Origin: Hydnum rufescens UP504
Taxonomy: Eukaryota > Basidiomycota > Agaricomycetes > Cantharellales > Hydnaceae
Reading direction: 5' to 3'
Assembly (NCBI GenBank): GCA_014904985.1
Contig: MU128940.1
Span: 1 to 64,000, forward strand
Length of the DNA: 64,000 nt
Part shown: positions 1 to 50,010 of the stretch, one piece after another
Layout: every line of letters begins with the position of its first letter
Position numbering within the stretch: the stretch's first letter is position 1
The notes under the pieces: generated by a model
Seen by the model: only the letters and a program-made list of their open reading frames with translations
Database searches by the model: none
What the model was told of the DNA's origin: nothing
Position numbers and translations under genes: made by a program

Positions 1-608
1 AGCGCGCCAACAACGCAACACACGCCAAACGACGCGACCTACGGGAGTGCGCCAACGACGCAACACACGCCAAACGACGCGACCTACAGGAGCGTGCCAA
101 CGACACAACACACGCCAAACGACGTGACCTACAGGAGCGTGCCAACGACACAACACACGCCAAACGACGTGACCTACGGGAGCGCGCCAACGACGCAACA
201 CACGCAAACGACGTGACCTATGGGAGCGCGCCAACGACGCAACACACGCCAAATGACGTGACCTACGGGAGCGCGCCAACGGCAACACACGCCAAATGAC
301 GTGACCTATGGGAGCGAGCAACGACACAACACACGCCAAACGACGCGACCTACGGGAGCGCACCAACGACGCAACACACGCCAAACGACGCGACCTACGG
401 CAGCGCGCCAATGATGCAACACACACCAAACAACGCGACCTACAGCAGTGCGCCAATGACGCAACACACGCCAAATGACGCAACCTACGGCAGCGCGCCA
501 ATGACACAACACACGCCAACACACCAACAACGCGACCTACAGCACCGCGCCAACAACGCGGCATACGGCACCGTGCCAACGACACGACATACGGCACCGC
601 GCCAAATG
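1..608 (+). repeat. 45-bp coding-type minisatellite (15-residue repeat)
   Basis: About 13 tandem copies of a 45-bp unit. 45 is 15 codons, so each copy reads as the same 15-residue phrase, roughly QHTPNDATYGSAPTT with R/V/M variants. The frame is open from base 1 to about 213, where one copy has lost a base, and reopens later (411-650). Substitutions between copies are mostly C/T and G/A at CpG sites. The array runs off the left edge, so a parent gene may lie outside the window. It is either a decayed coding repeat or a non-coding satellite with a unit length divisible by three. Confidence 0.85.
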
Positions 609-6739: not shown

Positions 6740-7597
6740 CATTGGCTAACGGATGGAGTACAGCGACAGTTTGATTGTTGGTGTATCCTGAATTGGGGAC
6801 ACGTGGAGGCCACGTTCTTACCCATCGGAATAAAAGCTACAGGAAGCTACGTACTGCCCGAATGAGCCGTGGATCCTAGGGGATGAAGCGTGCAAAAGGT
6901 CAACAAGGAGAGGTGAGGTCGAACACGGTCTCTCTCCCATAGCCGCAGCTGTCTGATATGGCGAATGCTACATTGTTTGGCCAGACTCCGTCCTGGTCAC
7001 TCAGGCAAAGTCGGTGAGAGGATATCGGCGAACACCGACACCTGTCACATTACGCAATCGTATCACGTTACGAATCATCCTTGGTATATTAGGTAGCGAT
7101 ACAACCTTTTGTATCATCTTTTCTAGCCCCCCTCGAATAGAGCTTTTTCGCACAGTCACCTTGCTACTGCCGACAGTCTTGAATGCTCTCTAGACGAGAT
7201 CGAGTGAACTTGGATCCAACCGGATCCAGTTCCCTCACAGTTGGGCTGTTGTCTTGTATGATCAGGAGTAATCAGTGTGGTCAGATCTGGCCACTTCTGG
7301 CCATTGATATCAAACCTGTCATATCATAATATTTCCCTCTCCGGTTTGCCCATGTTGCCTGGTTCACTCTTTCCGGAGCAGGCTGTGGCACTCAGCCACA
7401 CCTGTTCCCTGAAGCACTCTATCTCGATGAGGCGTCCACGGAGAAGTTCGTGCTTCTCCGCCAGGAACGACTCAAGTTGACATAACAGGAATGCTCCTGC
7501 TGCCTAGCTTTTGACGGGGTGGGGTATGTAATTGATGAACACTTTCACCTACATACGCAGTCGCCCTCTCTCTCTCTCTTTCTCTAGTCTATCGACC
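6740..7597. promoter_or_regulatory. Shared intergenic region between divergent GTPase genes
   Basis: This 860-bp gap separates the starts of the two G-domain genes and should hold both promoters. A long CT-rich run at about 7564-7590 lies just before the right-hand ATG, a common feature of fungal transcription start regions. I see no clear TATA box and no other gene. Confidence 0.5.
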
Positions 7598-8937
7598 ATG
7601 TGGAAATCTATCCGCGAGCATTTTAAACTCCCCAAGAAACCCGAGAAAAAAGTCTCTGACGAACAAGTCCCCGATGAACAAGTCCCCGACGAACAAGCCC
7701 CCGACGAACAAGTCCCCGACGAACAAGTCCCCGATGAAGAAGTCCCCGATGAGGAAGTCACTGACAAAGTCCCCGCCAAAGACAGGGTAAGAAACAACCG
7801 CTTCAGGATCCTCATACTTGGACCGGCGAATGCAGGAAAGACCACTCTCCTGGAACGACTAACAGACAGCCCTGCCGGTGCGGCCATAGTGACCCGGAAG
7901 GGACAACGTGTCAGTACTACGGTTTGAACTAAGTAGAGATGCCAGGCTAATTCATCCTTTTATCTCTTAGATCCAGCAGGCCCCCAAGGGAGACGATCAA
8001 GTAAGAGCCATCCTAGCAATGGTGCCCAGGGTGATGACGTTTCCCTACCATCTAGCGAGGGATCCACAATATTGACGATGAAATCACTTACGCATCAAAC
8101 GGTGACTTCGTTTTCCATGACTCTGGTGGTTTCGAGGCGGGAGGTGTCAAGGAGGTCGAGGCCGTCTGGAAATTTATTCGCGACCGCTCGTTAGCTTCGC
8201 CTTCACAGCAGTTGCATGCGGTTTGGTGACTTTGCCCATGCATGTTCTCACATCATCATACTTCAACTCATCGATTGCTACAGGCTCTGCATTCCAACAG
8301 ATAATGATAGGCCCTTTGGATTCCTGCGGTCAGGTTTTTTCTCGGAACCCACAGCGTCAGGTATGTCTCATGAGTCCCTGCGTTCGACCCAACATGTGAC
8401 GCAGTGGTCCGTGCATCCCTCAGTGCCTGTTATCGGGATTTTCACCAAGCTAGATGGAAGAGAGATGAAAGTGTTGAATGAGGTTGTCGGCCCTGATCCC
8501 AGTCAATCCGATTTCCTTGCTTGTGCCCGGAAGGTGGAGCAGAAGGTGGCTGAATTTGTTAACAGACTCGAGACACAATTTCGGAACCACCGGCACCCAC
8601 CCGCTGGTTTCATCAGAGTCAGAGGTATGCATTCTCTATCTGAGCCACAATTTTGGCACTTAAATCTATGGCTTGAAGACATGGACAAAGTTAGTGAGCA
8701 GAGTGTGGCATTGTGCAACCAACTTCTTCAAGCAACTATGGGTGCTCTTCCCCATGAGACCCAGAGAGAATTGCTCAAGCTCACGGTTTGGAAAAGAAAT
8801 CGCCGGGTTCATACCATATATGTTTTAGAACGGTGAGTCTGGATGTTCAATGGATTAATAGTGATTAACAGCCATGTTTATTTTGTAGTGTCCTTGACAG
8901 TGGAGCTAAAGGTTCTGTCCTCAAGTTGTGTCAATGA
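7598..8937 (+). CDS. Fungal G-domain (P-loop) GTPase-like protein, intact
   Basis: Seven exons with consistent phases: 7598-7909, 7971-8000 (only 30 nt), 8056-8225, 8284-8360, 8424-8624, 8679-8832, 8889-8937, giving 330 residues. The ATG at 7598 follows the CT-rich tract; an in-frame ATG at 7532 lies upstream of it. Motifs: Walker A/G1 GPANAGKTT (residues 75-83), G3-like HDSGGFEAG (from about 135), HAVWLCIPTD after the third intron, and G4 FTKLD (203-207). The N-terminus has a DEQVP-type repeat. Family members bind GTP; no reaction partner is known to me. It is shorter at the C-terminus than many relatives. It adjoins the microexon array, whose first exon begins 37 bp after this stop. Confidence 0.88.
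7651..7770 (+). repeat. 15-bp minisatellite encoding acidic pentapeptides
   Basis: Eight or so copies of a 15-bp unit (GACGAACAAGTCCCC and variants) encode DEQVP/DEEVP pentapeptides inside the first exon of the GTPase. The unit is a multiple of three, so copy number can change without breaking the frame. It forms an acidic, proline-containing and probably unstructured spacer between a short basic N-terminus and the G domain. Confidence 0.9.
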
Positions 8938-8973
8938 GATAATGGTACAATTTGACTATGTTCAGGGAACATT

Positions 8974-11900
8974 ATGACCAGGATCCCAGGACCTGGGGAA
9001 GATGAAGAAACCCAGTTACATACAGATAGTGGATTCAGGATTCTCATGGTGAGTGACTCTGTCACTTGTGAGCAATGTACTGACTGTATCATATGCTGTA
9101 ACTGTGCTAACTGGCTGTGACATTATTGGTTCATTGGATGGCATTGACAACATAGGAGGTATGGCAGCAGACACTAAAATTTGTTGCATGATCACTGGTT
9201 TACATCTCTATTTGTGGCATTGACAATGCAGTTGGTCAGTCCAAATCTCCAACAATGTGATACATGGTAGCTGGCTGATACATTTCTTGATGTCATTGGG
9301 AACACAGTATGTGAATGTGAATCTCCCATCATTTGATGCCTTGCTGTTCTCTGATACAACTTCTGGTGGAATCTGCAATGTAGGGGGTGAGTTTGCATCT
9401 CTTAGAATTTGATGTGAGATTGCTGTGTTTACATCTTTGGGTGGCATGGAAAACATAGTGTGTGAGTGTGCATTTCTCACCTTGGGATCTGCACCATTGC
9501 CAGCTGATATATCCCTTGGTCATGTGAACAATGTAGGAGGTAAGACTGCACCTCACATCTTGATATGTGGTCACTAGTTGGTAGAACTTTTGGTGGGATG
9601 AACACATAGAATGTGGGTTGGATTCCCATGCCATTTGATGTATGATTAGTGACTGCCTATCTTTTGGTGGCATTAACACCATAGTATGTATGTCCAGAAG
9701 TCTTGGAATCCAATGCATGGTTGCTGAGTGACAAATATTTTGTTGACATTCACAATATAGTATGTGAGTGTAGATTCAATATGAGGTCCTTGGCTGATAT
9801 GCTATTGGTGGGATCAATAAAATAGGAAGTATGTTCATATTTCCAAGTATTCATGGGAGGTTACTGGCTGATGCATCATTTGATGACATGGACAATGTAG
9901 TATGTAAGTTGGGGATTCCTATGAGTTGGCAGATGGTTACTAGCTGATCTGTCATTGGATGATGGATGATGGACACTGTAGAAAGTCAGTCTAGATCTCT
10001 TGCAATTTGATGTGTGTATAGGCTGATATTTCTTCCACTGTCATGGACAATGTAGGCAGTAAGTCCAGTTCTCTCACAATTTGATCTGTGGTCCTTTGTT
10101 GATAGTTGACACATTGTTTGGTTCCATTGACACTGTAGGCTGTATGTATAGATATCTTCCAATTTGATGTGTGGTCACTGACAGGTAGTGGATTGTTTGG
10201 TGACATTGATAACATAGGATGTAAGTGTGGCTCTCCACCTTGACACACCATCCCTGGCTGACACATCACTGGATAACATTGGCAACCAAGAATGTGGGCT
10301 CCCTTACGATTTTGTCTGATTGCTGGCTGATCCATTTTTGTTGGCATTCACCTTCACATAGCTGGTGGGCAGCTTCTCTTACAATTTTGTGCAGGATAAC
10401 AGGCTGATACATCAATGGGTCAATGGGTGGTATTCACAATGTAGGATGTGAGTCCATGCCCCAATCATTAGATGCTATTTGATACATTGTTTTCAATGTC
10501 AATAATGTAGGATGTGAGTCTGGGTGCCTCCCAGTTTGATGTGTGGGTGCTGTCTGATATATCATTGGGGGGGATTGATGAAATAGGAAGTAAGTCAATG
10601 TCACCCACCATTGATGGGTGGATGTGGGACTGAGACATTCATTGGTGGCACTGACAACATAGAATGTAAGTCTAAATTCCCTAGTATTCAATCAATGCTG
10701 GTTGGCTGATATAGATTGGGTGGCATTGACAATGTAGGCTGTAAGTCTAGTTCTCTTCCAATGTAACACATGAGTGTGGAGTGATATTTCTTTGTCTCAA
10801 ATGGACAATGCAGGAAGTAAGCCTGAATCTCCTACAATGTAATGCATGGTCACTCTCTGATACATTGTTTGGTCCCATTGACAATGTAGCATGTAAGTTT
10901 AGATCTCCTTTAATTCAATGAGGGATCACTGCCACTATATTCTTTGGTGACATTAATAATGGAGGATGTAAGTTCTAATTGACACCTCTTTGATGCACAG
11001 TCACTGGCTTATACATCTCTGGATGACTGTGACAACCTAGGCAGTAAGCCTGGCTCCCTTTAAATTTAGTGTGTGGTGCTGGCTGATCCCATCAATGGTA
11101 TCAACATTGTAGCTGGTGGGCTCAGGACCTCTCACAATTTGATGCAGGCTGATTCATCATTTGGTGGCATTGACAATTTAGGAAGTGAGTTGCATTGCCC
11201 ACCAATTGATATATGGGTGTTGGCTAATACATTCATTGCCTGGTATTGAAAATGTAGAATGTATGTTGAGGTCTCTGGTAATTGAATGCATGCTCAGTGA
11301 CTGACACAATCTTGGTGGTCTGGATAATGTAAGGTGGTGAGTTTGAGTCTCTGACCATTCATGGGGTGGTACTTGGTTGAGGTATCTTGGGTGACATTGT
11401 AGTATGTAAGTCCAGATATCATATTGATTGAGGCATGGTTGCTGGCTGATTCATATTTTCCATTGGCAACAAAGGGGGTAGGTCAAGAGGGTTCAATTCC
11501 ACATACCACTGCTGGCTGATTTCTCTTGTGGGTGGTGTTGACAACATAGAGGGTAAGCTGGGATCTTTTAGAATTTGATGCAAGGGGCCTGATTGATGGA
11601 TTGGTTGATTACCTGAACACTGTAGGATGTAAGTCCATATCACACACCCTCAGAAGAATGATTAACTGTTGATACATCTTTGGGTTGACACTAAAAATGT
11701 AGGAAGTAAGTACAGGTGTCTTAGAATTCAATGGATTGTGCCTTGCTGATTTATCTTTTCGTGGCATTCACAACATAGGCTGTAGGGCAGATGTCTTAGA
11801 ATTCAATGGATTATCCCTTGCTGATTCATCTTTTGGTGGCATTCACAACATAGCTTGTAAGTCTGGATGTCTTAGAATTCAATGGAGTGTCCCTTGCTGA

Positions 11901-12940
11901 TTCATCTTTTGGTGGCATTCACAATATAGCATGTAAGTCTGGATGTCTTAGAATTCAATGGATTGTCCCTTACTGATTCATCTTTTGGTGGCATTCACAA
12001 CATAGGATGTAAGTCTGGATGTCTTAAAATTGAATGGATTGTCCCTTGCTGATTCATCTTTTGGTGGCATTTACAACATAGCATGTAAGTCTAATGTCTT
12101 AGAATTCAATGGATTGTCCCTTGCTGATTCATTTTTTGGTGGCATTCACAACATAGGTTGTAAGTCTGGATGTCTTATAATTCAATGGATTGTCCCTTGC
12201 TGGGTCATTTTTTGGTGCCATTCACAATATAGGTTGTAAGTTGAAATCCCCCACAACTTTGATCCACCATCTTCACTGGTCCATCTTTTGATGGCATTGA
12301 CAATATAGGAAGTAAGTCCTGATGTCTTGGACTGTAATATGTCATACCTTGCTCATTACTCTTGTGGTGGCATTGACAATTCAGTCTGTGGTTCCAAATG
12401 TCTTTGACTTCCATAATACATCATTGTTTGCTGATGTGCCTCTTGGTGGTTTTGTCCCCATAGATGGTTAGTGCACACCTCCCACCACTTTATTATTTCT
12501 CTCCCTGATCTCTTCCTTGGTGGCATCTACTACCCCATAGGATGTAAGTCTGCATCTCTTACTCCTCATTGTATGGTCCCTGGCTTGTACACACTTTGCT
12601 GCCATTTGGAATGTAGCTTGTGAGTCCCTAGATCTATCCAATGGAATCACATTCTATTTTGCAACTGCCCTCTTCACAATTGTATTTTCCACAGGATGAT
12701 GTAAGTTCATCTAATGTGCCAAAGTCAAATGATTCTGTACAATTGCAATCTCATTCATTGCTTGCCTTAATTCTGTCTGGTAAATATTGTCATTGTACAC
12801 TTCAATCCTTACCCCTATCTCATCTAGGTTTCATTAGGTGCTCAAACCTGCAGGGGATCAAGGCCAGTGTGCCCCTCCTCAAAGTGTTGGTCAGTTTAGT
12901 TTCTCATTCATTTCCCAGCTTCAGGAAATCTAAGCATTAA
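8974..12940 (+). CDS. Putative gene made of single-codon microexons
   Basis: A first exon (8974-9048, ATG to a GTGAGT donor, 25 codons) is followed by 48 intron-like units, each GT...AG, separated by 47 spacers of exactly 3 nt. The last unit ends at 12694. The terminal frame 12695-12940 is open to a TAA, with an optional 48-nt intron at 12780-12827. Every junction is phase 0, and none of the 47 one-codon exons is a stop. The implied product is about 136-153 residues, rich in Asp/Glu in the microexon part. I recognise no domain. The GFRILM of exon 1 resembles the strand before the P-loop of the neighbouring GTPase. It may instead be a satellite that never makes protein; RNA is required to decide. 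Confidence 0.4.
9049..12700 (+). repeat. Tandem array of 48 intron-like units (about 76-bp period)
   Basis: Units run donor GTRAGT/GTATGT, a variable middle, a CTGAT branch-like motif about 29 nt before the end, then GGCATTSACAAYRTAG, then 3 nt and the next donor. Intron-like lengths are 62-80 nt (first 107), with 20 of 48 exactly 73 nt. All 48 start GT and end AG; 44 end TAG or CAG. Exceptions are units ending at 10290, 10964, 11333 and 11474 (AAG/GAG). Units 11706-12232 are nearly identical, while others have diverged heavily outside the splice-like motifs. Almost no CpG occurs. Confidence 0.93.
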
Positions 12941-20111: not shown

Positions 20112-20550
20112 ACTGGAGTTTTAACGGTTAAGAAGAAAAGGAAAAGGAAAAGGAAAAGGAAACGGAAAAGGGCACGGAAAGGATGAGAGTAAGAATTAAG
20201 AGGAGGAAGTCAAGAACGTCGGGGCGATCGAGACGTGTGGGAGAGATATGGTGAGAGGAAGAGAGATAGAGAGATGTGGGGAGAGGAAGAGAGATAGAGA
20301 GATGTGGAGAGCGGAAGAGAGCTAGAGAGATGTGGGGAGAGGAAGAGAGATAGAGAGATGTGGAGAGCGGAAGAGAGCTAGAGAGATGTGGGGAGAGGAA
20401 GAGAGATAGAGAGATGTGGAGAGCGGAAGAGAGCTAGAGAGATGTGGGGAGAGGAAGAGAGATAGAGAGATGTGGAGAGCGGAAGAGAGCTAGAGAGATG
20501 TGGAGAGCGGAAGAGAGCTAGAGAGATGTGGAGAGCGGAAGAGAGGTATG
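20112..20550. repeat. Purine-rich repeats, including a 28-bp minisatellite
   Basis: A short AAGGAAAAGG run (20128-20168) precedes about 11 copies of a 28-bp unit (GGAGAGCGGAAGAGAG followed by CTAGAGAGATGT) at about 20240-20550. Two unit types, GGAGAGCGG and GGAGAGGAA, alternate, giving a higher-order 56-bp period. It lies in the untranslated part of the gypsy element between pol and the antisense gene. Confidence 0.9.
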
Positions 20551-20583: not shown

Positions 20584-23500
20584 TTATACTGCCAGGTCGA
20601 GTACTTCTCGTCCTGGTTTTTCGGGGTGTGTGCGATGGAAGTCCATTACTGCTTCGTGAGCATTGGCGAGTTCTGCTGCTGGGAGCCAGCTGAACTTGTC
20701 GTTGGTGTGCTCGTAGCCGGACCATCGTATGCGATAGATTAAGCCGTTACCGCGATGGCGGTGATCGGTCTTGCTGTCGACGATTTCTGCGATTTCGTAT
20801 TCGAGTTCGCCGTCAATTTCGACAGGTGGGGGAGGTGGTTGGGTGTGATTGGGGAAGGGATCGGGGTGAGTGGGTTCAAGTAGTCGCACATGGAAGACAT
20901 TGTGGATTTGATTCATGGCGCGAGGGAGGCCAAGGCAATATGCGTGTGTTGAAACTTTCTCGGTGACTGGGAAGGGACCGAGTTTCTTGTGGTCCAGTTT
21001 CTTCGATGGTCGCTTTGTTTTAATGTTGCGCGTGTCAAGCCATAGTTGATCACCGATGTTGAGGGTGGGGAAAGGAGGTTGCGATCCAGCTACTTGCTGT
21101 TCGTTTTGTTGTCGTGTGATCGCGAGTTGGTCACGAACGTACTTGTGTACGTCGCGAAGGTCGAGCGTGGCTTGGTTGGCCTCGGTTGAAGGCACTGCTT
21201 TGATATTGATCTCAAGGTTGGGGTGAAAGCCTTTGTTCGCGAAGAAGGGTGTTACGTTCGTCGCGGAGTGCTCTGCATTGTTGTATGCGAACTCTGCGAG
21301 GGGGAGAAGCAGTGCCCAGTCGTCTTGCAGGTAGTTGACGTAAATTCGTAAGTACTGCTCAAGGATTTGGTTCAGGCGCTCGGTTTGGCCATCGGTCTTG
21401 GGGTGATATGCGGTCGAGAGGTTGAGTTTGATGCCGAGTCTCTTTGCGAGCGATTTCCAGAAGTTGGAAATGAAAAGTGAGCCTCGATCTGAGATGATGT
21501 TGGCGGGTGTACCATGTTTGGATATGACCCAATTGATGACTAGGTCAGCAAGTCCTTCTGCGGGAAGTGTCGCTACCATGGGGATGAAGAGACCCATCTT
21601 CGTGAATCGGTCGACGATAATGAGGATGGAGTCGAATGAGGAGGAGGGTGGGAGTCTGGTGATGAAGTCCATCATGATCGAGTTCCAGGGTCGATCAGCA
21701 ATGGAGAGGAATTTGAGGGGGCCGTATGCGGCATGGTGCGAGGATTTCGCACAGGCGCATATGACGCAAGATCGTACATATGCCTTGACCGTTTTCGTTA
21801 GTCCTGGCCAGTAGTATTTTCGCGTAATAAGGCGGATGGTTTTGTGAATGCCTGGGTGGCCCACAAGGAGGTGGTCGTGCGAAGCGCGAAGGATGTTGAG
21901 GCGGAGGTCGCGATAGTCGGGGACGTAGACGCATCCTTTGTGTAGTAGCAATGTCGCGTCCTCTGAGAGCAAGAAGAAGGTGAGGGCGGCTGTCGAGTCG
22001 CCTTTGGTGGTCTCGATGCATTCACGCACTTGTGTTGCGATGGTGTTGTCACGAGTGCCTTCGCGAATCAGTGCAAGAGTCGTCTCGGAGTCGAGAGGGT
22101 GGTCATCGAGGGTCACTCTTAAGTATGCGCTAAGAGCTGTGTCCGAGTCGAGAGGTTTGGCGTCGTGAATGATTGTTTGAAGGTTTTGCAGGTTCGCAGT
22201 TGCATATACCTCGTTTCGTTCGGGTGGATAAACATCGGAGCATCTTGTGAGGGCGTCTGGTTTTCCTCCCAGTCATCCTGGTCGATAGATGATGATGTAG
22301 TCGAAGGAGGAGAGGTATTCCGACCATCACGCCTGTCGACGAGTGAGGAGTTTCGTGGAGGTGAAGTACTCCAAGTTTTTGTGATCCGTGATGACGGAAA
22401 CCATGTGCGCGGCTCCTTCGAGATATGCTCGCCAGGTGCCAAAGGCGTCGAAGATCGTGAGGAGTTCTTTGTCATGGATGTCGTAGTTTAGTTCCACGCT
22501 TTGCATTGATCGCGAGCGGAATGTGATGGGTCGAACTTCGTTGTTCTTGTCGATTTGTGACAAGATCGCGGTGATAGCATAGTCAGACGCATCAGTTTCT
22601 ACAATGATGCATAATTCGGGGTCGAAGTGGCGGAGGACGGGGGCTGATACGAAGGCGTTTTTGATGCTTTCAAAAGCTCGTTGGGTCTTGTCGTTCCATG
22701 CGAAGGTTTCGTCTTTTTTCGTGAGACGGATTAAGGGGTGTGTGAGGTCTGAGTAGGTCGCAATGAAGCGGCGGTAGAAGTTCACGAAGCCTAAGAATGA
22801 CTGGACTTCTTTTACCGAGGTGGGCGTGGGCCAACTTAGGATCGCGTCAAATTTCGTAGGGTCCATCTGGACGCCAGAGGGGGTGATGATGAAGCCGAGG
22901 TACTCGATAGTGTCTGTGTGGAAGGTGCACTTCGAGATCTTGGTGTGAAGGTTTCTTTCGTGGAGTCGTTGTAGTACACGGCGAATGTGTTTGCGGTGTT
23001 CTTCTCGCGAATTGGAGAAAATGAGGATGTCATCGAGATATACGATGACGAACAGATCCACCATATCCTGGAACGAGTCGTTCATGAAATACTGGAACTG
23101 CGCTGGGGAGTTGGCTGCTCCCATTGGCATTACGAGCCACTCATAGGCACCGTACCATGTATGAAATGATGTGAGCCACTCGTGTCCTTCGGCAACTCTG
23201 ATGTTGTAGTAGCCATCGCGAAGATCGATTTTCGTATAGATTGTAGCACTGTGAAGGTGATCGAGGAGGTTGTTGATGAGGGGGATGGGGTAGCGACTCT
23301 TTTTCGTGATGCGATTGAGTGCTCAATAATCAACGCAAAGGCGAAGCCCGCCACCTTTCTTTTTCGTGAAGAGGATTGGCGCGCCTGCGGGGGAGGTCGA
23401 AGGGCGTATGAATCCTTTTGCAAGGAATTCATCGATGAACTCGCATAGTGCTGCGAGTTCGCTTTCCAACATTGGGTATATGGGGCCTCGCGGTACTTCG

Positions 23501-25996: not shown

Positions 25997-26208
25997 ATTG
26001 AGTCTTTCAAGGAAGTCAGTTATTTAGATCGAGAATACTGTTCAACACTGGCCATAAGATTTCTCCACAAAGCTCATGTAGAAATTGATGCTAAGGCCAG
26101 GAGCTTCGTGGGATAGCATTACCCATGAGCTTCGTGCAATGGCATTACCATAGCATTACACATGAAGACCCACAAGTGATGCTATGCCAAATATAGTAAT
26201 AATGTTGG

Positions 26209-26321
26209 TGGTTGGGGATGGTTGGGGGTTAGGGTTGGGGGTTGGAGTTGGTGGTTAGGGTTGGGATTGTCTGGAGTGTGGTTGGGAATGTCTACCCCCA
26301 TGCCCGGGGTTAGGGTTAGGG
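26209..26321 (+). repeat. Telomere-like TTAGGG repeats, left arm
   Basis: Degenerate GGTTGGGGGTTAGGG runs end in a perfect GGTTAGGGTTAGGG at 26308-26321. The mirrored block is in the right arm. TTAGGG is the usual fungal telomere unit. Confidence 0.85.
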
Positions 26322-26324
26322 TTT

Positions 26325-26640
26325 GATAAATTACATAATATTCTATATTTGGCAATATTACCTAATCAACTTCCATATTTAGCAATATTACATAATATTT
26401 GATCACCTAATTAATTTCCACATTTGGCACCATTACATAATCTTTGATTACCTAATCACTTTCCATATTTGGACATATTACATAATATTTGATTACCCAA
26501 TTAATTTCTATATATGGAAATATTACATAACATTTTTATTACCTAATTAATTTCCAAATATGGAAATATTACATAATTACATTCCATATTTGGAAAGCCT
26601 TACCTAAGCTACCATATATAGCTATATTACCTAATCTAAT
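26325..26640. repeat. AT-rich tandem repeat of the left fold-back arm
   Basis: Repeated TATTACATAATATTTGATTACC and CCATATTTGG blocks with a period near 60 bp. The mirrored section is about 30060-30335 in the right arm. Confidence 0.8.
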
Positions 26641-26707
26641 TACATAAGCAAAAAAGCAGAAATGGGGGGGGCCCCAGGGGGATTTGTTGAAAGCCTTGAG
26701 CCTTATA

Positions 26708-29700
26708 CAGTAGTGGACAGGCTAAGTCGACAAATTTCTCTGCAACTTGAGAGAGGCCACCCAGACTTCCGTAAACTGTCGGAAAACACTTAAAATACAC
26801 GTAGCTAAGTGATCACGGTCTCATTTCTTTACTAGCGGCACTTTTTTCATTAAAAAGAGCCAAAAATCCTGTTGGGCGCTTAATATTGAGCGCACGTGCT
26901 CATCAGTGGGCTCAAAATGTAGCTAAAGAGCAGTAGAATCCAGTGGTAGATGTTCTGGGGGGCTGAGCCCCCAGGACACAAGAAAATTAGTATTTTAGAA
27001 TTACCCCCTTAAGTCGGGTCACTCCGTGGCAATGTCCGAGATCTATCCAACGTCGGCCGTGCTTGTGCTCTTTCTTTCCTTCAATGGGGGACTCGCTGAT
27101 TACATCCTACTTTACCCTTCAGTCTAAATTGACTAGATCTTATGACCTCACATCTGAGACTGAATCCGAAATATCTGGCTTGGATGATGAGAGTTGGGAT
27201 CCACGCGCCGTTCAAAATAATGAGTACCCTACTTTTGTTGCCCCTGATGATGCTCTATTGGATGATCCGACGGAATCTGATATGGAGGCCGATGATATTT
27301 ATATCCATTCTATTTTCAAGAGGGCCACTGAGGAACTCGATATGGGGCCATGTACAGATCCAACTTATCACCCGAAGCAGAACAAACAAAAGCGGAAAGG
27401 GAAGGCACAGGGACACAGTGAGATTTATCCAGATCTTTATGATAGTATCCTTAGATCTCTTGCAGGACGGCCCACAAAGTATGTGAGAGGACTCGATAAT
27501 GATATCATGAGCAAGACTGGACAAACGAGAAATCGCGGTGCAAAGGAGAATCCGTCTCAAGGGAACCTCGATACATTCCTTTTCTTGCCTTCATTACCTG
27601 TTGATTCTGGCAGTCCTGCGCCCCCTATTTACGTTCCCTCTCGTTCACCATCACCTGAACCATGTGGGCAGGAGCTGCTGCCGCCTCTATCTTGTCTTCC
27701 ATTTCCCCCACCTCTGGAAAGAACCCAAAAATCTCTGTCTCCTATCCCCAATGAGGCGGACAATCTAGATGATGATTCTGATGACGAACTTGATGAACTC
27801 ATCCATCACGACTCTCGATCTTGTGTGACTGAGATCCGCTCGTGGCCGGTATTAAGAAATGAGATTGACGGCATCTTACACAAACAGAAAAATAGAGCAA
27901 CGCTCCCACTGAACCAGGTATGCCTTTGGCCAGATGAACTCGGGTACTTGGATGCTAACTTTCAGGATAAAAGATAAACCAACTTCAGCTTATCCGTAAT
28001 TTCGCCACCCTCCGAATCAAGGGATTCAAGAGAACATCTGCCAGTGTTCACCTGGCTCTGTCGCACCATGATGGAGATGGTGTTTACTTTGCGCGACGAG
28101 TACGGGCTCTTGCACGACATTATCAAATGTATGAACAGCTCCCAATTGACCGCCGCGGAGGAAAGCGTATTGGGTCTTCTCATCTGGATGATGAGGATGT
28201 TGAGCGAGAGGCCCACTCTTGGCTTGATTCCCAGAAAGTCGGCTCGGTGACTTCATCAAACTTTTGCAGAGCACTCAATACCTCGATCTTTCCTCAACTT
28301 GGTATTGCGTTGAAGCAGCCTCTGAGCAACCGCACTGCCCGTCGCTGGCTACATAAACTTGGCTTCCGCCACAAGACTCTGACAAAAGGCGTATATATGG
28401 ACGGGCACGAGCGAGCGGATGTCGTTGCGTACCGCGAGAATGTGTTTCTTCCTGCCATGGAGAAATTTGAGCGTCGCATGGCCCAGTATCATGGGCCTGA
28501 GCTTAAGCATTGTGAACCCAATCTGCAGCCAGGCGAGAAGCGTGTCATTGCGCAGTTCCATGATGAGAGCTGCTTCCATGCAAATGAATTCAAGCGGTCA
28601 GCCTGGTGTGTATTGGTTTCACTTATTTTGGTTTTATTTCATATGGCTCACTCCCTTTCAGGCTGAAGGAGGGATCCATGGTTCTCCAGAAGAAAAGTCG
28701 TGGTCGCTTAATCCATGTTTCAGATTTCATCAATGAAGAAGATGGGCGCCTTGTGCAACAAAATGAACAAGGCCAAATTGTTCGAGATGCACGCAAGATC
28801 ATTTACCCAGGTGCTGCCGGGGACCCGTGGTGGGATACCAAGCAACTTCTGACTCAAGTAACCAATGCGATCGATATCTTCAATGTCACACATCCCGATT
28901 GTGAGGCACTTTTCATATTTGATCAATCCTCTGCACACGCTTCACTCGGACCTGATGCATTGCGACCCTTCGACATGAACAAGGGAAATGGTGGAAAGCA
29001 ACGCAAGCAGAAAGACACCATAATCCCCAACGATAATCCCACCATTTCCTTACGTGGAACAGTACAGAGAATGACGACAGAAAGTGGTGAGGCAAAAGGC
29101 CTACAGACAGTCCTTGAGGAACGTGGATTTGACACAAAGGGCATCCGCGCAAAATGTTCCCCAGTCTGCCCTTTTGAGAACGAAAAGTGTTGCTTGGCTC
29201 GGATCTTCAACAGGCAGGAAGATGTCATTAATCAGGTATCCATGTTGGAGGAACTCATCACAAAGGCAGGGCACCACTGTATTTTCTTGCCAAAGTTTCA
29301 TTGTGAGTTGAACCCGATAGAGATGGTGTGTATGAACAGTTGGTCTTCTATTTTGGGGCTCTAATTGTTCTCTCCAGTACTGGGGTTATGCCAAGTACCG
29401 TTACCGCGGAGTCTTCAAAAACACATTTGCGGATGCCAAAGCAGCAGTTCTTAGCAGCCTTCAGTCCTGCCCACTCGATACACTTCGACATTTTATTAAT
29501 CGCACTTGGAGATTTATGTCAGCATATCGGCAGGGACTCAGGGGGAAGGCGGCTGAGTGGGCTGTGAAAAAACAGCGCTCACACCGCACTGTCTCAAGGC
29601 GTGCAATGCTTGCCATTGAATCTATCCTCAATTAATCAATTCTAGTAAATAGTTGAATAATTTTTCTGATGTATATAGGCATGCCAGGAGGCTTTTTATT

Positions 29701-29870
29701 TTTATTTTTCTGCCCAAAATCCAGTGGGCGCTAAATATTGATCACATGACCTCAATTAGGGGTGTTTCTGAACCGCAGAGACCAGGGGAATCCAAAAAAC
29801 CACTTTTCAAAGCCTCAAAGTCACTGGATCGACCTCAGTGAAACTTTCCGTCTTTGCCTGTCCACTACTG
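26708..29870 (+). mobile_element. TA-targeting DDE DNA transposon, apparently intact
   Basis: It is flanked by TA on both sides (26706-26707 and 29871-29872). Terminal inverted repeats share about 20 bp, CAGTAGTGGACAGGC followed by A/T and AAG. It carries a four-exon transposase without in-frame stops. It inserted into the dyad centre of the surrounding fold-back element. TA duplication is typical of the Tc1/mariner supergroup, but the transposase spacing is unusual. Confidence 0.88.
27084..29635 (+). CDS. DDE-superfamily transposase
   Basis: Exons 27084-27917, 27974-28605, 28662-29325 and 29378-29635 join in consistent phase to 795 codons plus stop. The exon 2 acceptor (AAAAG at 27973) is inferred from frame. 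The N-terminal 280 residues are acidic and low-complexity. The catalytic part follows: QFHDES (D475), IFDQSSAHASLGPDALRPF (D576), a Cys-rich block AKCSPVCPFENEKCC, and FHCELNPIEM (E709), then YWGYAKYRYR. The D-D-E order and LNPIE motif resemble Tc1/mariner-type enzymes, which cut DNA at TIRs and integrate at TA. The second D to E distance is about 132 residues, far more than in classical mariners. It matches a family usually annotated only as DDE superfamily endonuclease in mushroom genomes. It has no nonsense codons, unlike the surrounding gypsy element. Confidence 0.87.
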
Positions 29871-29872
29871 TA

Positions 29873-29998
29873 TGTTCCTCAGAATGTCTGTGTGTAGGGT
29901 TGACCCAGTTGTGGGATGTTTGAGTGTCATTTAAATCCAAATGACACTCAAATGTCCCACAACTGGGTCAACCCTACACACAGACATTCTGAGGAACA
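29873..29998. mobile_element. 126-bp palindromic MITE with TA duplication
   Basis: Almost its whole length is one inverted repeat: TGTTCCTCAGAATGTC... to ...GACATTCTGAGGAACA, dyad near 29935. TA flanks it at 29871-29872 and 29999-30000. The mirror position in the left arm (26700-26707) keeps the empty site, proving insertion after the arms formed. Confidence 0.95.
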
Positions 29999-30334
29999 TA
30001 TAAGGCTCAAGGCTTTCAACAAATCCCCCAGGGCCCCCCCCCATTTCCGCTTTTTTGCTTATGTAATTAGATTAGGTAATATAGCTATATATGGTAGCTT
30101 AGGTAAGGCTTTCCAAATATGAAATGTAATTATGTAATATTTCCATATTTGGAAATTAATTAGGTAATAAAAATGTTATGTAATATTTCCATATATAGAA
30201 ATTAATTGGGTAATCAAATATTATGTAATATGTCCAAATATGGAAAGTGATTAGGTAATCAAAGATTATGTAATGGTGCCAAATGTGGAAATTAATTAGG
30301 TAATATTGCCAAATATAGAATATTATGTAATTTA

Positions 30335-30402
30335 TTAAACCCTAACCCTAACCTCACTGGGCATGGGGGTAGACTCCAGACAATTCCAACCCTAACCCTA
30401 AC
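30335..30402 (-). repeat. Telomere-like CCCTAA repeats, right arm
   Basis: AACCCTAACCCTAACC at about 30337-30353 and again at 30388-30402, the inverted counterpart of 26209-26321. Confidence 0.85.
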
Positions 30403-30633
30403 CACATTATTACCATATTTGGCATTAGCAACACTTGTGGGTCTTCATGTGTAATGCTATGCTATCCCATGAAGCTCGTGGGTAATGCTATCCCATGAAG
30501 CTCATGTGTAGTGTGATGCTATCTCCCATGAAGCTCATGGATAATGCTATCCCATGAAGCTCCTGGCCTTAGCATCAATTTCTACATGAGCTTCATGGGT
30601 TTTTAGCATATGATCTTACGGCCAGGGCTGTAC

Positions 30634-38424: not shown

Positions 38425-41400
38425 CTAACCCTGTGAAGTAGATCTCGATGGGAGTGGTGGCCTTAGGTATAGGGGTGCTTTTTTCCTATGGTATTCCTGT
38501 AGGGCCTCCGGGGCGTTTCTTAGGTCGCAGCTGGATTGCCAGGAGTCATGTTCTGGGCCATAGCCTAACCAACAGACTAGATATTCAATCAAACATTTTT
38601 GTTTATTGTGTTGGTGGTCAATAATTTCATCCACCTCATACTCTTCTGAAGACTGTAATCCGTCCCGTGGGTTTGTGAGTTGGGGGCAGTCCTTGTCTTC
38701 TGACTGTCTATACAGTGTCAGGTGCTCTAGATTGACCACATTATGCATTGGCATGGAATCAGGCAGCCTTAACCAGTAAGCCATGGGGCTAACCACTTCC
38801 GTGATCTCAAAAGGCCCTATGCGACATTGCATGAACTTGCGACCCATACCCTTAACATCCACTAGTTCTAGGGTATGGGGGTTTATTAGTACTTCGTCAC
38901 CTATTTTGTATAGTATGGCTTGATGTTTTTTGTCGTACTGGTAGGCTTGAGTATTGGCCAACCTCACTATAGCATCTCTGGCTAGATCTCGTCATACTCT
39001 GAGAGTGTTTATTCTACTGTTGGCCAGGGGGCTGGTCATTTGCAGGGGTTCGGCTTCCTCCTGTAATAGTCATAGAGGAGTCCAGGGAATGTACCCTAAT
39101 AAAAGTTCTGCGGGGGCAGCTTGGGTGGATGAGTGTACTGCCCAGTTGTAGGTGGAGGCCAACATGTCTAGCCAGTCGACCCAGTCCATATGATCAGTAC
39201 TTACATAACACCGAATCATGGTCTCCAGATGCTGGTTCATGACCTCCATCTGGCCGTCTGTTTGAGGATGGTGCGATGTGGACATAGCCAGTCGGGTGTC
39301 AAAATAGTTGGCCAGAGCCCGCCAAAAGTTACTTATGAACTGAGGGTCATGATCACTCACTATCCGTTTGGGCAACCTGAAATGTTTGTATACTTCTCAG
39401 TATAGCAAAGTCGCTACTCGGTCAGCTGTGACCCATGTGGTTGTTGGTATGAATGTTCCATACTTGGTAAGTTTGTCCACTACTATGAGTATAGCATCAT
39501 GTCCCTTCGATTCAGGTAGTCCTGTCATGAAGTCCATGCTGATCACTTTGAATGGCAGGCTAGGGACTTTGATCAGGGCCAGGTAACCTTTAGGCCCTGA
39601 CCTATCATGTTTGGTTTTTTGACATATGTCACAGGTGTCACAATACCATATAACATCCTTTCGCATGGACTTCCAGTAGTAACCTCGCTGCAGCACTTCT
39701 AGAGTTTTTCCCACCACCTGTGCACTGCTTCATGGGGGGAGTCATGCACCTCTTTGACCAGGTCCAATTGTTTGTTCTGTGGTACACAGAGCCTGAACTG
39801 ATTATCGGCATCTTTAAAAAGTATCAGTCTGTTACGTCCTCATGTAAAACGTTGAAATTGCTTGATTTCAATGTTCGGATCTGGAATGTTTTCCTCCCCT
39901 GTTGTGGGATTTGTTTGGGCCCACACAGCCTTAAACTCAGGATTGTGCTTGTAACCTTCCTGAAATTGACATATAATCTCTGGTGAGACTGCTAGGTTTA
40001 GCCCTGGTGCTCTTCTTGGAAGGCGTTGCAGTTCTGTATCCTCTTGTGTGACTTCCCCTGCATTACTTGGGACAGGGGTTGTTGGCACCGTGGCACCAGG
40101 TTGGGCCTTTGCTTGGGCTCTTGTTTGGACAAATACAGCTTTCCCAAGGCTGGGGGAGTGCATGTAACGGTTCCAGCTCTTGGCTTGACTATCCTCATTG
40201 GCTACAAGTTCTGGAATGTTTTGGTCTGTGGGGGATACCACCTCAGGGGTCAATTCCAATCTTGACAGGGGGTCCACATTGGAGTGCACTCAGCCTGGAC
40301 GGTGTACAATTGCCATACCTGGAAAGGCCGCAAATACTGCCCCCCATGCACTAAGGCATCAATTTGTGTTCTCATAAGTTTTTGCCCATTGTAGTGCTGC
40401 ATGATCAGTTACTAGTAATATACATTCTCCTTCGATGAAGGGTAGGAACCGGATCAGGCTGTCTTTGGCAGCTAGGGCTTCCCGTTCGGTGGTGGAGTAA
40501 TGCGTCTCAGCGGCTTTGCATGTGCGACTCCAATATGCAATAACCCATTCCACAAATACAATGGTATCTTTGAAGTTCTGGGCCCAGTCGTTTGTTGGGG
40601 ATTGGTCATCCTGCATGTCTGATAGTTTAGTTGTGAGTTCGGGAATAGGACTCTTGTCATTGTAGGCCTTCTGTAGTTGGTTGTAAGTCTTAGTACCCCA
40701 TAAATCTCGTATGGTTATAGGCTGGATCTGCTGTAGTGCTCCTGCAAGGGCAACATCGGAAGCATCTGTGTACAGATGGTATCCCTGTCCTTTGACCAGG
40801 TGACCCTGCACTGGTGTGGATGTGAGGGCTAGTTTCAACACCCTGTAGGCCTCTTCATGTTTGGCCCCCCAGTACCAGGGTGCTCCTTTCCTGAGTAGTG
40901 TGAATAGCGGTGCCGCACACTCTGAGAAATGAGGAATATAGGCAGCAAAATACACTGTCATTCCTAGAAAGGTCTCCAGGTCCTTTTGGTGCTGGGGAGG
41001 GGCCAGTGCGGCCACGGCTTGTACCTTTTCAGCATCCGTGGATAGACCTAGCCAAGATACTTTTTGTCCTAATAGTCGTATGCTACGATATCCCACATGG
41101 CATTTATGAGGTGCCAGGGTAATTCCTGATCTTTTGATGGCATTCAGCACAACGTCGATGTGTTTAAGGTGTTCCTCAAATGAGTGGGAATACACCACAA
41201 TGTCATCTATGTAGACTAGAGTGAATACCCATAAGTAGGGGGATAAAATTTCTTGCATAACTCGTTGGAAGATGGGTGGGCCATTTCGCCAGCCAAAGGG
41301 CATTCTAGTGAACTGATGAAGGCCCTGGTGAGTTCTCATAGCTGTGTAGGGCTGGGAGACTTTGTCAAATTCTAGCTGGGTGAAACCTGCTAGTGCGTCA

Positions 41401-42841
41401 AAGGAGGACAAGTACTGAGCCCCTGAAAGAGCCTGCAGGATGTCCGTCTGCTGGGGGATGGGGAACTGGTCCGCTATGGTGGCCACGTTTAATTTTCTCC
41501 AGTCTACACAGAGTCGATCCTTGCCATTCTTGTGTACGATAAGTATGGGGGCTCCCCAAGGGCTGTTGGATGGTTCGATTACACCCTGTTTCAACCATAG
41601 GTCAAGCTGTTTGTCGATAAGCTCACATTTGGCAGGTGAGGCAATGTACAGCACTGCTGAAATAGGTTTTGTCCCCGCTTCGAGTTCTATATGCACCCTG
41701 GTAGGGTGCTTTCCCAATCATCCATTGAACCCAAAAGCCAATTCATTTTTTTGTAGTACCTTGTAGATATGGGCTCTTTGCTTGGCTGGCAAGGATGGAT
41801 CCACATCCACAAGCTTCTCTAGGTCTTTGGAATTGAGCATGTCCATACTACTGGATTCAGCGGTCTTGGGACCCCAACTGCTGGGTTCCTCGCTCTCGGT
41901 TGGGGCCATTGACTGGGTTGCTTTTCCTTCATTGTTGGGGTGATTTAGGTCCTTTTGGTTGAGGGACCCTTCCACTAGTGCTTGTACCAGTGCGGCCCAT
42001 AGAATTGCTCCTTCTCTTTGGTCATTAGACTATCTTCCTTGGCCAGACAGGCCACAGGATCAAACATTAGACCTAGTACTTCCCCTTTTCGTACATACTT
42101 GGGCATGGGTGAAGGGTTGGCAATGGACAGGTACACATTGTTAGCTGTGTCAACTAAACAGTCGGTGGAGGCCAGGAAACTGTCCTGTCCTCGCCAGAGG
42201 ACATGTTTCTCAATGAGTCATGTCCTGTTTCAGTGATCAAAATTACCATATATTGGAATTTTGGATATGTATCCTCCCAGTATGCAAGTATCCTTTGCGG
42301 CATAGACCTTTCCCTTGCCTGTCTTGCGTTGAGGGGAAGAGTTGGAGGTTCTTCCAAGGGAAATTTTAGTTATTTGTGAGACAGTGAAACTCTCTGAGTG
42401 GCTACCTGCTTGGGTAGCAGGTATTTGGTGTTCACTATTCCCAACTCACCAATAGGCCTCATGTTCTGGCCTCATAGTATGTAGTTGCCAGGATCTGTGG
42501 GTATCCTCACCTATGAGTAACGGGGCATTCATCCCCTTGACGACATAGGCTTCTATGTTGTGTAGGAGGACCAGTCCTAACTGACTACAGAAGTACAGAT
42601 CAATTGTGATGTAGCCCAAACACTTGGCCTCCCTGGTGAGATGTATCAACCTTAGTTTCAGGCCTTGCTTGATAGTGGGAGCTTCAGCCCCCATAGACCA
42701 TAAGCAACATGCCGATACTAACGTGGCTGCAGCACCCGAATTGGCAACTGCTTCAATAGTTGTTCCCTGGGGGCCATTCACCCAGCACTCGATCTTGAAG
42801 GCATCCATGCCCAGGCTAGCTAATCCTGGTGGTTTCTTCAT
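38425..42841 (-). pseudogene. Second gypsy polyprotein (protease-RT-RNase H-integrase-chromodomain)
   Basis: Minus order: retropepsin-like domain (42446-42841), in which the expected catalytic DSGA reads NSGA; linker frames (41718-42357); RT/RNase H open for 452 codons (40359-41717) with LCVDWRKLN, YIDDIVVYS, LYTDASD and STTEREALAAK; linker 39840-40289; integrase zinc and core (39397-39717, CDTCDICQKTKH, MDFMTGLP); SDHDPQF and TDGQMEVMNQ (39070-39375); chromodomain VDEIIDH...WLGYGPEHDSW (38425-38967). Seven TGAs stand where CGA is expected, and SDHD replaces the usual SDRD by a CpG to CpA change. The gag region is not seen upstream. Confidence 0.92.
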
Positions 42842-49490: not shown

Positions 49491-49497
49491 CAACTGC

Positions 49498-50010
49498 ATT
49501 GACATGGAGCTCCATCATCTGGAGACAAGCTCCTCAGTGTACAAGACAGGAGCTGCAGGAAAGATTAGCAGCTGAAGAGGCAAAAGTGCAGCTGAATTTT
49601 CTGAAAATGGTACTCCAGGGATTCTGAAGGAGCTAATGATAATCAAGGGATGAACTCCACCCATACCCATGAGATTGCATTGACATGGAGCTCCATCATC
49701 TGGAAGCAAGCTCTTCAGTGTGCAAGACAGGAGCTGCAGGGAAAGATTAGCAGCTGAAGAAGCAAAACTGCAGCTGAATTTTCAGAAAATGGTACTCCAG
49801 GGATTCTGGAGGAGCTAATGGTAATCAAGGGATGAGCTCCATATGTGATATTGCATTGACATGGAGCTCCATCATCTGGAGACAAGCTCTTCAGTGCACC
49901 GGGTAGGAGCTGCAGGGGAATATTAGCAGCTGAAGAGGCAAAAGTGCAGCTGAATTTGCAGAAAATGGTACTTCTGGGTATCCTGGAGGAGCTGATGAAA
50001 GCATTTTTTA
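49498..50010. repeat. About 180-bp tandem repeat, three copies
   Basis: Copies begin with GACATGGAGCTCCATCATCTGGA at about 49501, 49681 and 49858 and share GGAGCTGCAGG and AATGGTACTCCAGGGAT blocks. Related GAGCTCC/GCAGCTGA-rich sequence extends to both sides (49370-50230). Confidence 0.85.

What the first reader, a model, noticed from the sequence alone, without database searches (positions are those of the whole stretch)
9049..12700. Forty-seven consecutive single-codon (3-nt) microexons between intron-like units
Seen directly: 48 segments each start GT and end AG, and the gap between every AG and the next GT is exactly 3 nt in all 47 cases, although segment length varies (62-80 nt, first 107). 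Donor consensus, a CTGAT branch-like motif and the TAG/CAG acceptor are kept while the rest diverges. An in-frame ATG exon lies before and an open frame after. Schistosome micro-exon genes and aphid bicycle genes are the nearest known analogues, but their exons are longer. If spliced, each unit adds one residue. I know of no described fungal gene of this kind.
Basis: partly seen in the sequence, partly recalled or inferred. Interest (0 to 1): 0.96.

Follow-up and report, generated by a model that had tools for sequence, protein, structure and literature searches.

The report
Fungal protein spelled codon by codon
The genome of the mushroom Hydnum rufescens holds, at 31 or more places, rows of short introns with mostly just one codon between them, attached to a GTPase gene in 17 of 19 copies checked; proteins predicted from environmental contigs show up to 28 such codons joined in order, likely by splicing, and the later codons differ as if at random between near-identical introns, which would give each gene its own protein tail.

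Summary
In detail: 9049-12694 holds 48 GT...AG introns (62-107 nt) with exactly 3 nt in 47 of 47 gaps, then a 6-nt exon. It is not an ATG-led gene but the 3' part of a GTPase gene of Hydnum rufescens UP504. At least 31 loci carry such arrays. Four JGI proteins bear on splicing: P0047 and P0048 run in frame from the GTPase through 28 one-codon exons; P0049 joins 11 and P0050 joins 9, each then reading into the next intron. That is near-direct evidence of serial splicing, but from related copies, and it stops before the variable part. The first codons are mostly constant across 17 copies. They are followed by hypervariable NNT codons: even between identical 73-nt introns the first two letters differ as if drawn at random, while the third stays T. 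Tail sharing among 22 arrays is no more than chance (8 of 231 pairs). How the letters are diversified and what the tail does are inferred. Ten paper searches listed no gene of this kind.

The parts
7535..8911 (+). GTPase part of the gene: exons 7535 (or 7598)-7909, 7971-8000, 8056-8225, 8284-8360, 8424-8624, 8679-8832, 8889-8911
   Evidence: Exon joins, corrected by NCBI model P0001; purifying selection in the exon near 8056-8225 (0.30)
8966..9048 (+).
   Evidence: P0001 and P0047-P0050 join it to the GTPase; in the transcript frame 0 changes to stop and lowest dN/dS-like value, 0.67 against 0.85 and 1.36 (15 copies)
9049..12694 (+). 48 introns of 62-107 nt enclosing 47 exons of exactly one codon
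9156..11705 (+). One-codon exons 1-35, constant part: E L Y G C E N Y Y E Y K A A D N L D D E N A E H D A L E N V Y G R D E
   Evidence: alignment with 16 other copies; exon positions invariant more often than intron columns for units 2-18 (37 of 51 against 478 of 918, P 0.006, 16 copies)
11779..12235 (+). One-codon exons 36-42, hypervariable NNT part, short in this copy: A L H D H V V
12236..12700 (+). Constant closing codons E S M D L and the 6-nt exon GATGAT (12695-12700)
   Evidence: closing block seen in the copies that reach it, in a variant form in some (L019, L020, L026, L028, C74)
12838..12933 (+). Predicted last exon VLKPAGDQGQCAPPQSVGQFSFSFISQLQEI and stop, after a 137-nt intron (12701-12837)
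   Evidence: Same stop in phase 0 in 12 of 13 copies where the exon was found; no sign of purifying selection (1.40); not covered by any protein found

Best explanation
This is the 3' part of a GTPase gene, one of at least 31 related array loci in Hydnum rufescens, in which 47 one-codon exons between 48 short introns are predicted to be spliced together one codon at a time, giving the GTPase a constant linker followed by a tail that differs from gene to gene. Shown: the architecture, its recurrence in 23 arrays read, the GTPase fusion, and intron-less joins of up to 28 one-codon exons in proteins predicted from JGI contigs. Inferred: that those contigs derive from RNA; that intron definition removes the roughly 73-nt introns serially, mostly from the 5' end, since P0049 and P0050 stop at the first unremoved intron; that the whole array, including the hypervariable NNT part, is translated in phase 0; and that the variable tail is a fast-evolving recognition or decoy surface on a switch-like GTPase. 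The variable part likely grows by addition of near-identical intron units, each arriving with two freshly randomised letters between the AG and the TGTAAG. Because each exon is 3 nt, gain, loss or skipping of a unit keeps the frame.
For: P0047 (109 aa, contig 931 nt) and P0048 (174 aa, contig 1186 nt) run GTPase-NIMTRTPGPGEDEETQLRADSRFRILM-ELYGCENDYEYKASDNLDHEKAEHDALE; the last 28 residues equal the codons of exons 1-28 of copy L013, in order. P0049 joins 11 codons then reads a diverged intron 12; P0050 joins 9 then reads intron 10 (VSVDSI*). None of 120 translated genomic matches of P0048 runs through the one-codon segment. Pattern of two successive units: 501 + 245 matches in the genome, 0 for the reversed control. 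GTPase upstream in 17 of 19 copies of the first fetch; in the other two the upstream DNA is largely N. Constant-part exon positions are more often invariant than intron columns. Variable part: T at position 3 in 535 of 556 exons; among 324 pairs of units with identical 73-nt introns positions 1, 2 and 3 differ in 65, 69 and 5%. Letters 1 and 2 of one exon are correlated (chi-square 85, 9 df), letter 2 and the next exon's letter 1 are not (11.5). No phase-0 stop in the array of this copy, L011, L014, L015 or L026.
Against: No read from this locus or strain was seen, and the source of P0047-P0050 is given only as 'jgi'. The joins end at unit 29; the variable part and last exon are not covered, and two searches for them found nothing further. 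Mean exon identity in the constant block (0.83-0.88 by position) is not above intron identity (0.84-0.88), and the changes in units 2-18 are 3 synonymous to 15 nonsynonymous, as expected without constraint. The last exon evolves without purifying signal (1.40) and is open in another frame too. Phase 1 of the array is also stop-free in this copy. P0047 and P0048 skip exons 30-31 to a cryptic AG and end early, so splicing may be error-prone. 12 of 22 arrays have variable-class exons of other lengths.
Confidence: 0.8

Rival explanations
1. Same gene, but the codon variety comes from ordinary mutation kept by strong diversifying selection while unequal crossing-over and gene conversion homogenise the introns, as in repeat-bearing fungal recognition genes.
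For: Intron similarity falls slightly with distance in the array, 3.7 mismatches at lag 1 to 5.3 at lag 20, and codon triplets recur within arrays more than in shuffles (24 against a mean of 13.4, maximum 22 of 300), so units are also duplicated with their codon. Podospora WD repeats evolve this way (PMC1805685, passages).
Against: Position 3 is hardly used although it would change the amino acid in two-fold boxes (8 of 236). Frame-broken arrays show nearly the same decoupling: same NN in 22% of 101 identical-intron pairs, against 10% of 86 in arrays without deviating units.
Confidence: 0.35
2. Mostly selfish or neutral growth of a spliced intron unit (introner-like) at a frame-safe site; the tail has no function of its own.
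For: 1098 matches of the intron consensus in the genome; tails unrelated between arrays (8 of 231 pairs above 20 shuffles); no purifying signal in the last exon; NNT codons can never be stops.
Against: Constant-part exon positions are more conserved than intron columns; the GTPase exon near 8056-8225 is under purifying selection.
Confidence: 0.3
3. Not spliced as 47 exons: a tandem repeat with intron-like consensus inside one large intron or the 3' untranslated region.
For: NCBI model P0001 ends in the first array intron; no transcript from this locus was available.
Against: P0047-P0050 contain exactly joined one-codon exons; GT and AG ends are kept in 48 of 48 units here while the rest diverges.
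Confidence: 0.06
4. Assembly artefact: random letters in collapsed or badly polished repeats.
For: Some copies show scattered single-base deletions in introns (for example L015 unit 77), typical of long-read consensus error; odd-length spacers in broken arrays may be such errors.
Against: Polishing error would hardly spread four letters over exactly two positions with the flanks intact: of 375 nine-letter junctions 343 keep T at position 3 and 375 keep the donor G. Constant codons agree between contigs.
Confidence: 0.03

Closest known systems
Schistosome micro-exon genes (MEG)
   Same: Genes built mainly of very short exons, mostly multiples of three, fast evolving, missed by annotation (PMC10526429, abstract and passages)
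   Different: There 10-20 exons, most of 15 bp, between introns of 0.1-5 kb in secreted proteins; here 47 or more exons of one codon between 73-nt introns, fused to a GTPase, with letter-wise variety
Aphid bicycle genes
   Same: Many micro-exons, one gene with over 100, rapid divergence (PMC9168663, passages)
   Different: Longer exons, almost all internal exons phase 2, secreted proteins; no one-codon array and no homogenised introns (the last as far as I recall)
Podospora NWD/HNWD allorecognition genes
   Same: Near-identical tandem repeats with a few hypervariable codons in an extended gene family of a signalling NTPase (PMC1805685, passages)
   Different: Repeats are coding WD40 units; here the homogenised repeat is an intron and the variable part a single codon
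Introner-like elements of fungi
   Same: Near-identical spliceosomal introns in high copy (PMC4457414, listing and start of abstract only)
   Different: Those are spread over unrelated genes; here the copies listed are in tandem arrays
Isolated 1-nt and 3-nt micro-exons (Fusarium CYP621A; Drosophila homothorax)
   Same: Show that exons this small can be spliced accurately (PMC12940212, abstract and passages; PMC7392893, start of abstract in listing)
   Different: One such exon per gene, conserved, no array and no hypervariability

Membership tests
P-loop GTPase (Pfam MMR_HSR1, PF01926) | Profile match above the curated cut-off | tested here: not met
   P0001 19.1 bits against 21.9 (Arf 20.5 against 22.3); the Rhizopogon relative P0037 meets it with 26.8
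P-loop GTPase (Pfam MMR_HSR1, PF01926) | P-loop GxxxxGKT and TKxD motifs | tested here: met
   GPANAGKT and TKLDG, nearly invariant across 32 aligned relatives; the names of the motifs are recalled
P-loop GTPase (Pfam MMR_HSR1, PF01926) | GTPase fold | tested here: inconclusive
   Model pLDDT 66, pTM 0.62; 102 PDB matches at E 0.001 or better, those shown mostly GTPases with Irga6 first, but query TM only about 0.35
Schistosome MEG / aphid bicycle type micro-exon gene | Majority of coding exons are micro-exons with frame kept | tested here: met
   47 of 47 array exons of 3 nt, joins in frame in P0047-P0050
Schistosome MEG / aphid bicycle type micro-exon gene | Secreted protein with N-terminal signal peptide | not tested
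   No signal-peptide predictor was run; the protein starts with a GTPase
Schistosome MEG / aphid bicycle type micro-exon gene | Homology to those families | not tested
   The protein searches returned Hydnum, Rhizopogon and unnamed proteins only; no direct comparison was made
Introner-like element | Near-identical introns in many unrelated genes | tested here: inconclusive
   1098 matches of the intron consensus; about 150 were listed, all on contigs with arrays; dispersed copies could be among the unlisted
Fungal NWD-type recognition gene | NACHT/NB-ARC domain with WD40, TPR or ankyrin repeats | tested here: not met
   Pfam at E 0.1 lists no such domain in P0001

The most novel reading that the evidence does not exclude
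A eukaryotic random-codon generator. Each new 74-nt unit is joined to the array with two untemplated letters (NN) before a constant T, as in immune-receptor junctions or reverse-transcriptase template jumping on excised introns. Splicing turns the array into a string of NNT codons, a set that cannot encode a stop, and in-frame exon skipping could add combinatorial diversity. A GTPase thereby carries a tail of essentially unlimited, gene-specific sequence.
Probability: 0.3. Interest if true: 0.97.

Novelty: categorically new. Interest (0 to 1): 0.93.

Why it matters
A coding stretch built wholly from consecutive one-codon exons appears in none of the papers my ten searches listed. It would show that a spliceosome can process dozens of successive minimal exons (up to 93 introns in one array parse, L015), that gene finders miss such genes, and that intron arrays can serve as a frame-safe substrate for protein diversification. 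The decoupling of two coding letters from near-identical flanking introns makes the question whether diversity is made by mutation or by selection directly testable by resequencing siblings.

Tried and rejected
A separate ATG-led micro-gene with a stop/start overlap to the GTPase (considered) was dropped: P0001 and P0047-P0050 show intron 8912-8965 and a continuous frame. A frameshift of this copy's GTPase (extra C near 8920) was dropped for the same reason: it lies in that intron. The second stop-free phase (NTN codons, hydrophobic) was rejected because the JGI joins use phase 0, letters 1 and 2 of one exon are correlated while letter 2 and the next exon's letter 1 are not, and the exon before the array behaves best in the phase-0 frame. 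Spacer-length variation as proof of a mutator was downgraded: the rate per nucleotide is 14-67 times that of introns in the seven broken arrays (L009, L012, L020, L027, L028, C252, C74), 5-7 times in L013, L015, L019 and L025, and zero in eight arrays, but scattered deletions in some introns look like assembly error. A first parse without length prior gave spurious 26-29-nt exons and was replaced. Two protein searches that included the closing codons and last exon found nothing that covers them. PADLOC gave only weak matches.

Rows left out of counts: L031 (2 variable-class units) from the 22-array tables; L010, L023 and L024; in the unit-pair tests only 73-nt introns with 3-nt exons. 'Without deviating units' (10 arrays) refers to the variable block only: L016 is among them although its constant block parses with frame breaks, and L010's first one-codon exon is ambiguous. 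Several arrays contain N runs, so their unit numbers are lower bounds. The listings were cut, so 31 loci is a lower bound; two of the 26 loci (C10, C217) match only over 0.8-1 kb. In one search the frame of exon 8056-8225 was mis-set; its value is taken.

Full report
What is there. No other spacing from 1 to 6 nt on the + strand, and no spacing on the - strand, gives a run longer than 9 in the window. Donor, acceptor and YTRAY branch-like motifs look ordinary for short fungal introns (the comparison is recalled).

Where it is. The closest protein to the upstream gene is P0001, hypothetical protein BS47DRAFT_1483996 of Hydnum rufescens UP504, on a contig of 366812 bases, the length of this window's contig C32. 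Hydnum is a basidiomycete of the order Cantharellales. The NCBI model runs through the GTPase exons and exon 8966-9048, then ends inside the first array intron (FRILM|VSDSVTCEQ...). The model thus lacks the array.

Relatives in the genome. DNA search finds arrays at 26 loci. A strict pattern for two successive units has 501 + 245 matches against none for the reversed control and shows arrays at C2:82478, C4:375596, C4:600616 and C9:491306 besides; the intron consensus has 1098 matches and adds C339. Both listings were cut, so 31 is a lower bound. I read 23 arrays (17, 2, 4). The GTPase region lies upstream in 17 of the 19 copies of the first fetch; in L023 and L024 no upstream match was found and much of the fetched DNA is N, but P0051, on a contig of the length of L023's contig, ends FRILMY.

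Splicing. A search with the predicted spliced product of this copy found five proteins. P0047 and P0048 (JGI, contigs of 931 and 1186 nt) run ...YVLERVLGGGAKG-NIMTRTPGPGEDEETQLRADSRFRILM-ELYGCENDYEYKASDNLDHEKAEHDALE-DSRYHID. The 28 residues after FRILM equal the one-codon exons 1-28 of copy L013, in order. The end, SRYHID*, is coded inside array intron 32, so exons 30 and 31 appear to have been skipped to a cryptic AG. P0049 (contig 1456 nt) joins 11 codons and then reads a diverged intron 12; P0050 (contig 1641 nt) joins 9 and then reads intron 10. The fifth, P0051, is an NCBI partial model. Translated search of P0048 against the genome lists 120 matches, which cover the GTPase exons and end at residue 145 at the latest; none runs through the one-codon segment. 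I infer that these contigs are transcripts of related copies and that one-codon exons are joined serially, the retained introns marking where splicing had reached. The source is given only as 'jgi', no read from this locus was seen, and the joins stop at unit 29, before the variable block (unit 36 onward in this copy).

Two kinds of codon. In the first 35 units many codons are the same in all of 17 copies compared (ELYG.E..YEY.A..NLD...), while others vary (units 5, 8, 14, 19, 26, 29, 32, 33); mean intron identity to this copy is 75-93% per unit. For units 2-18 exon positions are invariant more often than intron columns (37 of 51 against 478 of 918, P 0.006, 16 copies). Against this, mean exon identity over the block (0.83-0.88) is not above intron identity (0.84-0.88), and changes are 3 synonymous to 15 nonsynonymous. 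Then follows a block built on one 73-nt intron type, 7-51 units per array in 19 arrays. Here the exon reads NNT: T at position 3 in 535 of 556, as conserved as an average intron site (0.96 against 0.94), while positions 1 and 2 are spread over the letters (major letter 0.45 and 0.34). In 324 pairs of units with identical introns, position 1 differs in 65%, position 2 in 69% and position 3 in 5%, about the same as in pairs with many intron differences. Codon identity does not depend on distance in the array, intron similarity does slightly, and repeated codon triplets are in excess (24 against 13.4), so some blocks of units have been duplicated with their codons. Tails of different arrays look unrelated: 8 of 231 array pairs exceed all 20 shuffles, where about 11 would by chance; the strongest, L010 with L016, scores 20 against a shuffle maximum of 15. 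Ten codons dominate (GGT CAT CTT TAT GCT GAT GTT CCT TTT CGT); Ser, Thr, Asn, Ile and Cys codons are rare in both sets of arrays.

Mechanism. The simplest account of identical introns with saturated letters at only two exon positions is that the letters are set when a unit is added, not accumulated afterwards. Selection on the protein alone would also have used position 3, which it hardly has (8 of 236 two-fold codons). The place of the random letters, between a precise intron end and T plus a precise intron start, suggests RNA-mediated copying of excised introns with untemplated letters at the jumps, or cleavage and joining at the unit border; neither was tested. Concerted evolution with strong diversifying selection remains a serious rival. 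NNT codons cannot be stops and one-codon exons cannot shift the frame, so array growth is tolerated whatever its function.

Frame. Of 22 arrays, 10 have no variable-class exon other than 3 nt (306 units); the other 12 have 103 of 351. The spread is far from even (heterogeneity 198.6 against a maximum of 51.6 in 5000 permutations). This can mean live and dead genes, but scattered deletions in some introns look like long-read errors, so I do not lean on it. Given the intron indel rate about two deviations would be expected in the 10 clean arrays, so their clean record is not significant. The last exon has the same stop in 12 of 13 copies but no purifying signal (1.40).

GTPase. P-loop and TKxD motifs are nearly invariant in 32 relatives, an exon between them is under purifying selection (0.30, 17 copies), and the model, of medium confidence, resembles many GTPases, immunity-related Irga6 first, without resolving a subfamily. 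MMR_HSR1 is below cut-off for P0001 and above it for a Rhizopogon relative. A GTPase switch with a hypervariable tail would fit a recognition role, as in fungal NLRs, but that is analogy only.

Known or new. Nearest published architectures are schistosome micro-exon genes, aphid bicycle genes, fungal introner-like elements (listing) and repeat-based fungal recognition genes. Single 1-nt or 3-nt exons are known. None of the ten searches listed a paper on a gene with consecutive one-codon exons or codon-wise hypervariability; Hydnum rufescens with introns gave no paper. The library lacks most subscription journals and all preprints.

Noticed in passing
window 26097-30566: Transposon-like ORFs (27063-27977, 28127-28666, 28606-29364; weak DDE_3, below cut-off) lie between 45-nt tandem arrays at 26357-26577 and 30129-30304 that look like inverted copies of each other.
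   Followed up: partly
window 20584-23130 (-), 40359-41717 (-) and 55042-56034 (+): LTR retroelement ORFs: integrase with chromodomain, reverse transcriptase with RNase H, and a copia-type gag.
   Followed up: partly
window 1-519, 20241-20545, 49495-49998: Minisatellites with periods of 45, 28/56 and 176 nt.
   Followed up: no
window 7650-7749: 15-nt coding repeat giving VPDEQ-like pentapeptides at the GTPase N-terminus, variable in number among relatives.
   Followed up: no
L017/L018 (C252:57500-72000): Array matches on both strands within one cluster, as if part of an array were inverted.
   Followed up: no
L021/L022 (C74): The constant codon block occurs twice in one array, as if the array restarted.
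   Followed up: no
P0002: An NCBI model from Hydnum ends FKILM-DY-VSVDSI, that is two codons then the read-through of intron 10, so a gene model already touches the array.
   Followed up: no
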